Assembly: GCA_030272155.1 (NCBI GenBank)
Contig: CP126205.1
Span: 3,088,501-3,152,500 of the forward strand
Origin: Tetradesmus obliquus
Taxonomy: Eukaryota; Chlorophyta; Chlorophyceae; Sphaeropleales; Scenedesmaceae
Direction of reading: 5' to 3'
Length of the DNA: 64,000 bases
Positions 7,942 to 28,989 of this stretch are shown piece by piece. Position 1 is the first letter of the stretch. Every line of letters begins with the position of its first letter. A program made the translations under genes and the position numbers. Under the pieces are notes generated by a model. The model worked only from the letters and a program-made list of their open reading frames with translations, ran no database searches and had not been told where the DNA came from.

Positions 7942-10900
7942 TCAGTTGCGCAGCGCCATGTCCTTTGCTGCTGCGCCAGCAGGCACCGGCAGCGGCGGCA
8001 CCCAGCCCATTGCTCCTGGCGCTGCTGCTGCTGCTGGCTCTGCTGTCACCACAATCTCAGGCACCTCCAGCACGCTGCGGATACCTCCCACCACTCCCGT
8101 GGAGGGCGCTGCTGCTGGCGGCAGCTGCTCAAGGTACCTGCAAAGGCAAGAACGAAGGGGTGAGTGGGATTTGTATGGTTTCCTGAAGCAAAAACAGCAT
8201 GTGTTTTGTAGCACAATCAGCAGCGAAGGACATGGTGCAGATCATGCCAAGGCACACAGCCTCCCTGCAGCCCTGCTTACATGTTGTAAAATGACAACCC
8301 TCCCTTTACAGCCAAATGATAAGGCAAGCAGTCTGGTTCATACCTGTCAACCGCTGCTGCTGCGTCGCGCCCCTCCCTGATGGCCCACACCACCAGGCTC
8401 TGCCCGCGCCTGCAGTCGCCTGCAGCAAACACGCCAGGGATGCTGGTGGCAAACTCGCCCCACTCAGCCTGCAGGTCATCAGGCACAGAAGCAGCAGCAG
8501 CAACAGCAGCAGCAGCAGCGTTGTCAGCGGCAGCAGACAGAAGCGTTGCAGCTTATCACGCCAGCAAGCAAACAAACATGTGGATGCCGCTGAGCATCCT
8601 GGGATGGTGCAATCTGCGTGCAACTTGTGCACCTGCTGCATCTGACAGCTAGCTAGCCGCTGAACCCCAAACATGCAGCTGTCACATTATTTATTATGTT
8701 AGCACCTTAAAGTTGCTGCGCGCGTCCTTCTCCAGGCTTAGCCCCTCAGCCAGTGTTGCCTCAGGGCCCAGGAAGCCCATGGCCAGCAGCACCATGTCTG
8801 CCTCCAGCACGCGCGCTGAGCCGGGCTGCTCCACCATCTTGCCGCCCTCAAACCTGCAGTTCACAAGCGACATCTTCTACTTTGACTGACAGACACAACA
8901 TACTGTTACTTTGACTGTCACTTTGGCGCCTCTGACACCAGAGCACGTGAGCGCGCTGAGTCGAGCGCTCACACGTTCTGCAGCAGATAGCAAATGCAGC
9001 GAGACACCTGGCATCACACCCACCGGACGTTGACGATCTCCACTCCTGTCAGCTTGCCGTCTGCGTCCCCGATGAAGCGCTTGGTGAGCACGTTGTAGGT
9101 GCGCGGGTCGGCGCCGTAGCGGTACTTGGCCTCCGCATGGCCGTAGTCCACGCGGAAGATGCGCGGCCACTGCGGACGCGATAGAAGCAATGCGGCAAGC
9201 ACAAAGAGTGAGAGGCCTGCTTCAGAGGTGTGAGCTGTAGCGGTACTTAGCCTTAGACAACACAACATCAATGCATGCATCTTGCTGCCTTACACATTTC
9301 GCTTGCGGCCAGGGCTTGCTGCTGCAGCACTTGGCCGGTTGCGGGTCCATCAGCTGCAGGTTAACAAACAAGACTCAAGCAGAACCGCAACTCAACCGCA
9401 AGTAAACACATTGCGCACCTGTGGCCAGGGGTTGTTGCTGCCGCGCTTTGCCGGAGGGGGGTCCATCAGCTCAAGGTTGATCACACTGGTGGCGCCGTGC
9501 CTGATGGAGGTGGCGATGCAGTCCGTGCCAGTGTCGCCGCCGCCAATCACAATCACCTGCAAACACACGACGCACAGCGTCTTTGGTGACACATCACATT
9601 GGGTTGACAGTGGCGCAACCTTTGCCACAGCAGCAGCCAAGGGAATCAACTGCCCATTGCGCAGCTGGATGTCTAGCAGGCTCTTTGTGTTGGCCCTACT
9701 GTACTGCCTGTACTGCCATACCAATGTGTACTGCCTCAATGTTGTACTGCTCACCTTCTTGCCTGCCGCGCTGATGTACTGCCCATCACGCAGCTTGCTG
9801 TCCAGCAGGCTCTTGGTGTTGGCGCCCAAAAAGTCCATTGCAAAGTGCACGCCATCACACTCGCGGCCCTCAACAGGCAGGTCGCGGGGCCGTGTGGCGC
9901 CCGCCGCCAGCACCATCACGTCACTGTCTGCCTGCAGCTGCTGTGGGGTGACGTTGACGCCCACGTGCGCGCCTGCAGAATGTTCAAACAATTTATAGTT
10001 AGGATATAAGGATATACTTCATGGATTGACTAAACAACGCTCGTAAAGGTCGAGCAGCTGCACCCACGCATATTCTAGCCCTCAGTCACCGGGCACACTT
10101 CATGGTGAAGTTCCCGCCCACCTGTCGCGCACTTCACACCCAATCGCCACAACTTCACACCCACCTGTCACGAACTTCACGCCCTCGCGCGCCATGAGGT
10201 CCACGCGGCGCTGCACCACGTCCGTCTTGTCCGTCTTCATGTTGGGCACGCCGTACATCATCAGCCCGCCGATGCGGTCAGCGCGCTCGTACACCGTCAC
10301 CTGCAGCAGCGATAGAGAAAGCAGCATTAGCAATGGCACGGTTGCTGTCTGATGCTGGGCACGCAGCGATGTATACATTCACACAGCGACACACAGCAGC
10401 ATCAGCATTGGCGATTGGTGAGCTGGCCTACTGCTGCTGCCCAGAGATGCATAGCAATGCTATCTACAATGCCACTTGCATCAGTATGTTATATGTTATA
10501 CCGCTATTTCAGTGCGGCCCTCACCTCGTGGCCCATCTTGTTGAGCTGGTCTGCTGCTGATGCCCCGCAGTGCACAACAATACAATATAAATTAATCACT
10601 CCAAGATGTTGTAACATTGTTTCAGTGCACCCCTCACCTCGTGGCCCATCTTGTTGAGCTGGTCAGCTGCTGCTAGCCCTGCAGGGCCGCTGCCGATGAT
10701 GGACACGCGGCGCCCCGTGCGCACCTGCACACAGCACGGGATCCACAACAGCGCACGTCAGCCACTTGTGCAGAAGCCCAACGAGGACGCTAGGAGTGCG
10801 TCACGTAACGCGTTAGGGTCGGTCTGCACCATGAATCAATGAATACACCAACCGGCCGCTGCAACACATGCGCTACATAAGCACAAACATGTACTCAGTA

Positions 10901-28900: not shown

Positions 28901-28989
28901 GACCCCGGGCGCAGGCTGCCAGCGGGGAGTGCTCCCCGCTGTGCAGCCTCACTCCGAAGCCCTTGCTGGTACTGTGTGCCCCTCAGCAT
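7942..28989 (-). CDS. GLT1: NADH-dependent glutamate synthase (GOGAT)
   Basis: Makes two glutamates from glutamine and 2-oxoglutarate using NADH, probably in the plastid; called GSN1 in Chlamydomonas and GLT1 in plants. 43 exons join in phase to 2,280 residues, normal for this family (about 2,100-2,200). A 92-residue leader, probably transit plus propeptide, precedes Cys93 in [15 protein letters not shown]. That Cys is the glutaminase nucleophile and would become the mature N-terminus. Next come the GATase block ([28 protein letters not shown]), the central domain, and the FMN/synthase domain with [17 protein letters not shown] and the 3Fe-4S cysteines in [15 protein letters not shown]. The GXGXG beta-helix follows at 13304-14879. 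The GltD-like NADH/FAD part begins at about 12000, with 4Fe-4S cysteines ([28 protein letters not shown]) and two Rossmann motifs ([20 protein letters not shown]). Odd point: exon 11 carries an Ala/Gly-Asn-rich insertion. No broken exon was seen. Confidence 0.97.
12955..13303 (-). repeat. three downstream copies of the exon 30 donor edge (GOGAT)
   Basis: After the true exon end at 13304, three further copies of its last about 16 codons ([16 protein letters not shown]) plus donor and about 50 nt of intron follow at about 13180-13225, 13070-13115 and 12955-13000. Period is about 110-120 nt. The first two keep AAG followed by GTGGGT; the last reads AAGATGG and has lost the donor. Divergence increases with distance from the exon. 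Confidence 0.9.
13550..13740 (-). repeat. copies of the exon 30 acceptor edge (GOGAT)
   Basis: Upstream of exon 30 (start 13479) there is a good copy of its first 26 codons ([20 protein letters not shown] and on) at about 13655-13735, and a short fragment at 13550-13577. Both keep a CAGGTGTG acceptor context. Confidence 0.85.
14043..14425 (-). repeat. three upstream copies of the exon 29 acceptor edge (GOGAT)
   Basis: Exon 29 starts at 14042 with [14 protein letters not shown]. The same acceptor plus the first about 70 nt recurs starting at 14160, 14278 and 14421. The first two copies are a nearly identical tandem pair with a period of 118 nt and include the TTTTTCTTCAG or CTGCAG acceptor. 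The outermost copy is more diverged. Confidence 0.92.
14535..14615 (-). repeat. copy of the exon 28 donor edge (GOGAT)
   Basis: The last codons of exon 28 ([12 protein letters not shown] plus GT donor) recur in diverged form about 135 nt downstream of the true end at 14672. A further acceptor-side fragment of the same exon lies at 14943-14985. Confidence 0.8.
15205..15331 (-). repeat. copy of the exon 27 acceptor edge (GOGAT)
   Basis: The first about 22 codons of exon 27 ([22 protein letters not shown]) with its CTGCAG or CCACAG acceptor are present twice; the extra copy lies at about 15256-15331. The two differ at only a few positions. Confidence 0.85.
22054..22470 (-). repeat. upstream copies of the exon 13 acceptor edge (GOGAT)
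   Basis: Exon 13 starts at 22053 ([25 protein letters not shown]). Two almost identical copies with the same GCATTGCAG-type acceptor start at about 22199 and 22341 (periods about 146 and 142 nt). A strongly decayed third (VSHPAID...) starts at about 22465. Confidence 0.92.
23680..23747 (-). repeat. copy of the exon 11 acceptor edge (GOGAT)
   Basis: The segment repeats the start of exon 11 ([15 protein letters not shown]) about 200 nt upstream of the true start at 23545. A donor-side copy of the same exon ([12 protein letters not shown]) lies at about 23125-23175. Confidence 0.85.
26001..26330 (-). repeat. upstream copies of the exon 5 acceptor edge (GOGAT)
   Basis: Exon 5 starts at 26000 ([18 protein letters not shown]). 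Copies with a CTGCAG acceptor start at about 26124 and 26248, and a fragment of the downstream codons (MGKDDV) lies at 26275-26310. (CAG)n runs, CTG in the sense direction, separate the copies. Confidence 0.88.
26490..27000 (-). repeat. about five downstream copies of the exon 4 donor edge (GOGAT)
   Basis: The end of exon 4 ([20 protein letters not shown] plus donor) is followed by a ladder of copies at about 26970, 26880-26930, 26770, 26650 and 26490-26560, with decreasing likeness. The copy at 26880-26930 still reads [19 protein letters not shown] followed by GTG. Confidence 0.82.
27400..27700 (-). repeat. two downstream copies of the exon 3 donor edge (GOGAT)
   Basis: The end of exon 3 ([15 protein letters not shown] plus GTGAG) recurs at about 27565-27620 and 27415-27470, each with a GTGAGCAT or GTGAGGAG donor. 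Flanking intron sequence (TGCAGGAA, AACCCAA) is also repeated. Confidence 0.87.

What the first reader, a model, noticed from the sequence alone, without database searches (positions are those of the whole stretch)
7942..28989. Introns filled with decayed copies of the neighbouring exon edges ('exon-edge echoes')
About 25 or more of the 43 glutamate synthase exons have one to five extra copies of their first or last 30-100 nt inside the adjacent intron, always including the splice site. Examples are at 10521-10560, 11170-11223, 12955-13303, 14043-14425, 15256-15331, 15845-15895, 16085-16150, 17957-17985, 18935-18992, 19181-19262, 21597-21630, 22054-22470, 23680-23747, 25047-25080, 25760-25812, 26001-26330, 26490-27000 and 27400-27700. 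The TMEM45 and both SulP genes show the same. Likeness usually falls with distance from the exon, as if new copies are made next to it and pushed outward. I saw no duplication wholly inside an exon. Inference: short tandem duplications are frequent genome-wide, and those that span a splice junction survive because one splice site remains usable and the extra copy becomes intron. That would be a continuing route of intron growth and a source of cryptic splice sites. Intron gain by tandem duplication is a known idea; I do not know of this density being described.
Basis: partly seen in the sequence, partly recalled or inferred. Interest (0 to 1): 0.92.

Follow-up and report, generated by a model that had tools for sequence, protein, structure and literature searches.

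The report
Intron arrays echoing neighbouring exon ends
In a green alga, many introns carry decaying copies of the nearest exon's end at about 120-nucleotide steps; the copies are real and seen on several chromosomes, but plain duplication followed by decay does not explain why likeness usually stops at the splice site.

Summary
The 43-exon NADH-glutamate synthase has exon-edge copies in the adjacent intron at 35 of 84 edges (26 of 43 exons), against 1 of 84 (reverse complement) and 28 of 1722 (non-adjacent introns). 45 of 49 steps between successive copies are 82-156 nt, median over all 49 about 122. It recurs in a second glutamate synthase, a SulP gene and elsewhere, at lower and uneven density. 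A D1-protease match suggests Tetradesmus (Scenedesmus) obliquus (species recalled). Differences by codon position (10.7/12.2/21.0%) fit neutral decay of copies beside a mainly silent exon. A junction-spanning tandem duplication should leave the intron halves alike too; they clearly are in about 6 of 29 nearest copies, far fewer than a simulation predicts. In some arrays intronic copies of the exon part stay 90-99% alike while spacers diverge much more; in others both diverge equally. Best reading: old junction-spanning duplications, grown into small arrays, with the exon half kept fresh by gene conversion or unequal exchange. Likeness does not clearly fall with distance. No RNA or related genome was available.

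The parts
7942..28989 (-). NADH-type glutamate synthase gene, 43 exons, 2280 aa
27425..27625 (-). exon 3 donor copies (27574-27625, 27425-27480)
   Evidence: spacers alike
26494..26936 (-). exon 4 donor array, four copies, edge distances 226/350/475/597
26073..26331 (-). exon 5 acceptor array, three copies (one 100% over 49 nt)
25757..25819 (-). exon 6 acceptor copy, 6 nt short of the edge
24995..25075 (-). exon 8 acceptor copy (weak, next to CTG repeat)
23842..23908 (-). exon 10 donor copy (weak), 10 nt short of the edge
23659..23735 (-). exon 11 acceptor copy
23125..23175 (-). exon 11 donor copy
22870..22917 (-). exon 12 acceptor copy
22104..22457 (-). exon 13 acceptor array, three copies
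   Evidence: spacers alike
21590..21623 (-). exon 14 acceptor copy
21083..21144 (-). exon 14 donor copy, 98% over 62 nt, ends 7 nt short of the edge
20971..21017 (-). exon 15 acceptor copy, 22 nt short of the edge
20666..20705 (-). exon 15 donor copy
19182..19255 (-). exon 19 donor copy
18918..18990 (-). exon 20 acceptor copy
18613..18675 (-). exon 20 donor copy
17944..17976 (-). exon 22 acceptor copy
17703..17772 (-). exon 22 donor copy (weak), 20 nt short of the edge
17507..17549 (-). exon 23 acceptor copy
17095..17248 (-). exon 23 donor copies (17205-17248, 17095-17141)
   Evidence: spacers unalike
16921..17244 (-). exon 24 acceptor hits, two, weak (69-74%), doubtful
   Evidence: left out of the intron-length count
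16621..16676 (-). exon 24 donor copy
16098..16154 (-). exon 25 donor copy
15857..15892 (-). exon 26 acceptor copy
15259..15325 (-). exon 27 acceptor copy
14535..14612 (-). exon 28 donor copy
14096..14420 (-). exon 29 acceptor array, three copies; nearest two identical in core and high in spacer
13536..13731 (-). exon 30 acceptor copies (13536-13575, 13651-13731)
12949..13256 (-). exon 30 donor array, three copies
   Evidence: X2/X3 alike, X1 not
11177..11219 (-). exon 35 acceptor copy
10525..10573 (-). exon 36 donor copy
9649..9694 (-). exon 38 donor copy, 23 nt short of the edge
9304..9369 (-). exon 39 donor copy
2363..3046 (+). TMEM45/DUF716 gene: direct repeats at both ends of the exon 2641-2886 (copies 2363-2478 and 2964-3046)
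   Evidence: exon from PF04819 match; repeats seen as cross-hits of the segmental copy
52448..52739 (+). two-copy 142-147-nt tandem duplication in the first SulP gene, 85-86% over the whole unit
   Evidence: PF00916 matches on + strand at C15:3136957-3141367; that it spans an exon start is read by eye from the unit

Best explanation
These are small satellite-like arrays anchored on exons. Founding step (inferred, mostly old): a direct tandem duplication of about 100-160 nt spanning a splice junction; the copy attached to the exon body stays coding and the rest becomes intron. Growth (array structure shown, process inferred): the unit 'spacer + exon-end copy' is tandemly re-duplicated, giving exon-E(X E)nY, sometimes with a higher-order unit. 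Upkeep (inferred from divergence patterns): gene conversion or unequal exchange refreshes the exon-derived half from the exon or among copies. Because selection holds the exon constant it acts as master copy, while the spacers have no master and drift beyond recognition. Between refreshings each copy decays neutrally. The copies are taken to be by-products, not functional exons.
For: Local repeats overwhelmingly direct. Narrow spacing: 45 of 49 steps are 82-156 nt, four are 190-226; annotation-free scan peaks at 100-160 bp, 16 of 304 pairs below 90 bp, further bumps at 220-260 and 350-400. Unit length more uniform within than between ten hand-entered arrays (ANOVA p 0.0003; 0.008 without the two near-identical ones), e.g. 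the last three steps of exon 4, 124/125/122, although its spacers barely align. Codon positions 10.7/12.2/21.0%. Exon-part likeness without flank likeness in 18 of 23 nearest copies against about 1.4 expected. Between intronic copies only, where exon constraint plays no part: C5 array E2/E4 0.99 but X2/X4 0.83; second GOGAT exon 10, three copies, cores 52-55 of 58 identical, 5 of 8 variable sites with a base shared by copies but not the exon, spacers scoring only 9-12; pooled over 11 arrays core 0.79-0.88, inner flank 0.70-0.81, splice-side flank 0.67-0.76, control 0.63-0.66. Recent whole-unit expansions: C1 118 nt x4, second GOGAT exon 9 130-133 nt x5. SulP C14 array with a repeated unit of about 240 nt.
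Against: Conversion is inferred, not observed: mismatches in nearest copies are not significantly clustered (Stouffer z 1.10). Cores were picked for likeness to the exon, which inflates core over spacer. Arrays at exons 13, 29 (nearest two) and 30 (copies 2/3) show cores and spacers about equally alike, which plain tandem duplication explains. In second GOGAT exon 10 two of three spacer pairs score 12.0, above the best of 100 shuffles (11.0), the likeness lying next to the core. Hardly any recent founding event with X like Y was seen; SulP 52448 is the best candidate. Homology ends cluster 5-10 nt past splice sites (14 of 44 sites near block ends), which the model explains only indirectly.
Confidence: 0.48

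Rival explanations
1. One reading: frequent short tandem duplications everywhere; those spanning a splice junction survive and decay neutrally, with no later exchange.
For: Direct orientation, codon pattern, some whole-unit duplications (SulP 52448; arrays at exons 3, 5, 13, 29). By reasoning, exon-anchored copies stay recognisable about twice as long as intron-intron ones, which alone biases what is seen.
Against: Intron halves unrecognisable in most nearest copies, beyond simulation; Y unlike X in most arrays; no significant distance gradient.
Confidence: 0.2
2. Splice-bounded copying: an unknown process copies an exon end, bounded at the splice site, into the adjacent intron; the spacer was never duplicated. 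A staggered break at the junction with fill-in and filler, or a template bounded by spliced exons, are candidates.
For: Several recent copies (94-97% identity, C5 26490, C5 29465, C1 19320) stop at or just past the donor with unrelated flanks, by eye; block ends fall on strong splice sites of the right polarity in 11 of 28 blocks outside GOGAT, against 5 of 28 wrong polarity and a mean of 1.4 of 40 for random placement.
Against: Does not explain the narrow spacing, constant within arrays, or spacer likeness between units; inverted copies are nearly absent, though templated insertions would often give them (recalled); copies run a few nt into the intron and are not followed by the next exon (by eye).
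Confidence: 0.2
3. The copies are used: alternative micro-exons, or recursive splice sites with the copy's AG|GT acting as both acceptor and donor.
For: 15 donor copies with GT are as strong at +3..+6 as real donors (mean 3.33 against 3.31; 941 intronic GT mean -3.81); random decay of real donors at 20% per site would give 1.30. The gene finder called 63 exons, some of length zero, where I count 43. Silent differences (191 of 433, 44%) exceed the 26% expected if only the copy changed, which I ascribe to silent change in the exon.
Against: Amino-acid-changing differences are common (235 of 433, plus 7 stops). 14 of 15 changed bases in those donors lie at +4 or +6, where real donors vary (my count). 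Spacers can be 44 nt while the shortest intron of the window gene is 161 nt.
Confidence: 0.08
4. Assembly or haplotype artefact.
For: None specific; some near-identical arrays exist.
Against: Copies in the window gene range from 69% to 100% identity, with distinct spacers in many, and copies occur in several genes on several chromosomes.
Confidence: 0.03

Closest known systems
Intron gain or growth by tandem genomic duplication (potato RdRp PMC4974935, Drosophila PMC2891723; both seen only as search listings with the start of the abstract)
   Same: Tandem duplication involving splice-site sequence
   Different: Here existing introns lengthen, copies sit in arrays of about 120-nt step, at high density in some genes, and exon halves often stay fresher than spacers
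Small tandem duplications from repair of staggered breaks (PMC8355091; passages seen)
   Same: Direct local duplication by break repair is a plausible founding step
   Different: Described there at induced breaks; the passages seen say nothing of splice junctions or maintenance
Stwintron formation by donor duplication (PMC7138796; abstract and passages seen)
   Same: A duplicated donor inside an intron creates a second splice site
   Different: There 4-7 nt of donor and consecutive splicing shown on transcripts; here tens of nt of exon, no RNA evidence
Direct repeats near intron borders (PMC11782384; abstract and outline seen)
   Same: Direct repeats next to splice sites
   Different: There 4-30 bp, flanking the intron, read as insertion scars; here longer, both copies on one side, multi-copy
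Concerted evolution of tandem repeats (recalled)
   Same: Unit expansion, higher-order units, homogenisation
   Different: One unit is a coding exon under selection and often only the exon half seems homogenised

Membership tests
Tandem duplication spanning a splice junction | copies in direct orientation | tested here: met
   122 direct against 6 inverted local pairs; reverse-complement control 1 of 84
Tandem duplication spanning a splice junction | whole unit (exon part and intron part) shared by both copies | tested here: not met
   not met for most: flank likeness p<0.05 in 9 of 29, p<0.01 in 6 of 29; met for some arrays and SulP 52448
Tandem duplication spanning a splice junction | constant unit length within an array | tested here: met
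   ANOVA p 0.0003 on ten arrays with hand-entered steps; left out: first step of exon 4 (226), the exon 24 and exon 30 acceptor arrays, second GOGAT exon 10
Concerted evolution by gene conversion or unequal exchange | homologous parts more alike than linked parts of the same age | tested here: inconclusive
   met in C5 (0.99 against 0.83), second GOGAT exon 10 and pooled; not in exons 13, 29 (nearest two), 30 copies 2/3; cores were chosen for likeness
Concerted evolution by gene conversion or unequal exchange | mosaic tracts | tested here: inconclusive
   Stouffer z 1.10 over 34 nearest copies
Introner or transposon insertion | dispersed family of related inserts | tested here: not met
   102 intron hits outside their own neighbourhood in 264 kb, mostly in CTG/CAG-rich stretches by my reading; one of 42 introns searched in the whole genome found only itself and its own exon
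Retrocopy or cDNA insertion | exon-exon junctions in the copy | tested here: not met
   copies keep GT or AG of the junction in 25 of 35 best hits; those shown run into intron-like sequence, by eye
Stwintron or recursive splicing | consecutive excision shown in RNA | not testable with these tools
   no RNA data

The most novel reading that the evidence does not exclude
Exons act as selected master copies for intronic arrays: a genome-wide exon-to-intron concerted evolution that keeps splice-site-bearing pseudo-exon ends fresh in introns at a step of about 120 nt, so introns lengthen and hold a renewed stock of cryptic splice sites; or, bolder, a copying process whose breakpoints are set by splice junctions.
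Probability: 0.4. Interest if true: 0.86.

Novelty: new variant of a known kind. Interest (0 to 1): 0.7.

Why it matters
It gives a dense record of intron growth inside conserved genes: 5973 of 14205 intron bases (42%) of this gene lie between a splice edge and its outermost copy. It could let one measure how often exon ends are copied into introns, whether exon selection is passed to non-coding DNA through conversion, and how spliceosomes ignore near-identical splice sites about 120 nt away. Gene finders may be misled by it: my own called 63 exons (some of length zero) where I count 43.

Tried and rejected
Unsupervised gene finding collapsed into tiny or merged exons, so I trained on the hand-masked gene. 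I considered recursive splicing with the copy's AG, and micro-exons bounded by AG and GT at the inner boundary; by eye the boundaries looked arbitrary. I looked for the source of 29 spacers within 1.2 kb: 10 had a direct hit above the 95% shuffle level, mostly the neighbouring unit or CTG repeats, and 1 an inverted one; hits elsewhere in 264 kb were mostly repeat-rich; one intron searched genome-wide gave none. Mosaic tracts: not significant. Paper searches listed, among the titles and abstract starts shown, no description of exon-end arrays in introns at this density; the library lacks most subscription journals, so this is weak. Rows dropped before counts: one search used 29 of 34 nearest copies (period at most 160, flanks at least 25 nt); one search dropped low-complexity hits, exons under 60 nt, introns over 2500 nt and genes with fewer than 4 exons (looser counts are given in the observation check); one search dropped the weak exon 24 acceptor hits and one of four copies of second-GOGAT exon 10; one search used 40 blocks (28 outside the gene) after filters on period, identity and length; omissions are named in Membership tests. 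In the second GOGAT I removed predicted exons that I judged to be copies before counting.
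Full report
Setting. The window lies at G000:C15:3088501-3152500 of a 104.7-Mb, 17-contig genome. An 89-residue D1-protease fragment of this genome is identical to PDB 1fc6, which I recall as Scenedesmus (Tetradesmus) obliquus; the species is likely, not proven. I built the gene model with my own HMM, masking by hand the stretches that looked like echoes.

Observation. Exon against adjacent intron: 35 of 84 edges at score >=18; controls 1 of 84, 28 of 1722 and 27 of 1722; at >=30, 27 of 84 against none in any control. Counting every hit, 49 copies lie at 34 edges of 26 exons and 1 further inside. Of the 35 best hits, 28 reach within 1 nt of the exon edge and 25 keep the splice dinucleotide. 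Of 39 local direct-repeat pairs none has both copies exonic. Introns with copies are longer, median 402 (25 introns) against 212 nt (17); 5973 of 14205 intron bases lie between a splice edge and its outermost copy.

Elsewhere. In five 40-kb samples plus the rest of the window, with noisy automatic models, 24 of 373 edges carry an edge-reaching, complex copy, against 0 of 373 and 4 of 824; without the edge rule 37 of 373 against 11 of 373 and 23 of 824. Without the complexity filter, CTG-type repeats raise controls: 121 of 373 against 57 of 373. Density varies: C1 8 of 49, C2 0 of 85, C3 1 of 41, C4 1 of 76, C5 8 of 79, rest of window 6 of 43. A second, Fd-type glutamate synthase on C7, picked by family search, has 13 copies at 6 of 24 edges of a hand-cleaned model, reverse complement 0. 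A Pfam search for SulP rang four times on overlapping profile stretches in tandem on C14, the last three with a stop, and the sequence is an array with a repeated unit of about 240 nt. The TMEM45 exon has direct repeats at both ends.

Spacing and orientation. Local repeats are mostly direct: 122 against 6 inverted under 500 bp. An annotation-free scan peaks at 100-160 bp; 16 of 304 pairs lie below 90 bp; further bumps are at 220-260 and 350-400. In the gene 45 of 49 steps are 82-156 nt and four are 190-226. Pairs of 90-170 bp period fall in predicted gene spans in 99 of 111 cases, where spans make up 58% of the sample. This suits exon anchoring, but also the longer visibility of exon-anchored copies.

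Neutral copies. Exon-copy differences by codon position, over 49 copies that are not all independent, are 106/990, 121/994 and 206/983. Positions 1 and 2 change about equally and position 3 about twice as often, as expected if the copy is unconstrained while the exon changes mainly silently. Of 433 differences 235 change an amino acid and 7 make a stop. Silent ones are 44%, where 26% is expected if only the copy changed; I ascribe the excess to the exon, but coding constraint on some copies is not excluded.

What does not fit plain duplication. If E plus adjoining intron I were duplicated, I and its copy should be recognisable whenever E and its copy are 87-93% alike. In most cases they are not: flank scores have p<0.05 in 9 of 29 and p<0.01 in 6 of 29, one of them CTG-rich. 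A simulation that includes the detection threshold expects about 1.4 of 23 as poor as observed; 18 of 23 are (my sum over identity bins). Observed flanks were trimmed by 5-6 consensus bases and simulated ones not, so the expected scores are somewhat too high. Ungapped identity falls from about 0.8 in the exon to near control within about 20 nt of intron on the donor side; on the acceptor side it stays near 0.45, probably because a few cases are alike throughout. Several recent copies outside the gene stop at or just past the donor. Block ends coincide with strong splice sites of the right polarity in 11 of 28 blocks, wrong polarity 5 of 28, random placement 1.4 of 40 on average; near block ends 14 of 44 sites lie 5-10 nt inside the homology.

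Arrays. The form is E(X E)nY: spacers X are often alike between units, but Y beyond the last copy is in most arrays not like X; exon 29 is a partial exception and C1 is unclear (0.70 over 37 columns). Unit length is more constant within ten arrays than between them (omissions in Membership tests). In exon 4 the last three steps are 124/125/122 nt (the first is 226) though spacers hardly align. In C5 two intronic copies are 99% alike but their spacers 83%. In second GOGAT exon 10, for three of four copies, cores are 52-55 of 58 identical while spacers score 9-12; two of those scores exceed the best of 100 shuffles, so some likeness remains next to the core. Other arrays (exon 13, the nearest two of exon 29, exon 30 copies 2/3) show cores and spacers about equally alike. 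Pooled, cores exceed spacers, and spacers exceed the control.

Interpretation. Old junction-spanning duplications plus expansion explain orientation, spacing and array form. Refreshing of the exon-derived half by conversion or unequal exchange would explain young cores in old spacers; the pattern is shown in some arrays, the process is inferred. The mosaic test was not significant and core choice was biased by likeness. Splice-bounded copying without duplication of the spacer stays open, because some recent copies stop so sharply. Use of the copies in splicing is not excluded without RNA: 15 copy donors with GT are as strong as real ones, where 20% random decay would weaken them.

Literature. 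The potato and Drosophila tandem-duplication papers were seen as listings only. PMC8355091 was seen in passages, PMC7138796 as abstract and passages, PMC11782384 as abstract and outline. Nothing that I saw describes this density or the core/spacer contrast; the searches are named in Tried and rejected and the library is incomplete.

Noticed in passing
window 1-4819 and G000:C15:3076990-3081799: Near-identical segment (99.8%; in 4.8 kb two adjacent substitutions and two GCA/TGC repeat changes) about 11.5 kb apart, carrying the DUF716/TMEM45-like exon twice: a very recent tandem duplication or an assembly duplicate.
   Followed up: partly
L039 1686-3030 (G000:C14): SulP gene with a repeated unit of about 240 nt; by eye each unit holds a short and a long exon-end copy.
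   Followed up: partly
C2 sample, L006-L009: Sample with higher GC (0.618) shows no edge-reaching copy at 85 predicted edges; density may vary by region.
   Followed up: no
C1 sample about 19320-19859; C5 sample about 26490-27138: Donor-side arrays in genes that by eye look like a ClpP-type protease and a CEBPZ/Noc1-type protein (names recalled from motifs, not tested).
   Followed up: partly
window 61461-62130: 258-nt unit x2.6, 95% matches, downstream of the last Pfam match of the second SulP gene; recent array.
   Followed up: no
window 56431-56607: GGCAG pentamer array, about 36 copies, 97% matches.
   Followed up: no
window, many introns and exons: CTG/GCA trinucleotide runs are very common and inflate naive repeat counts.
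   Followed up: partly
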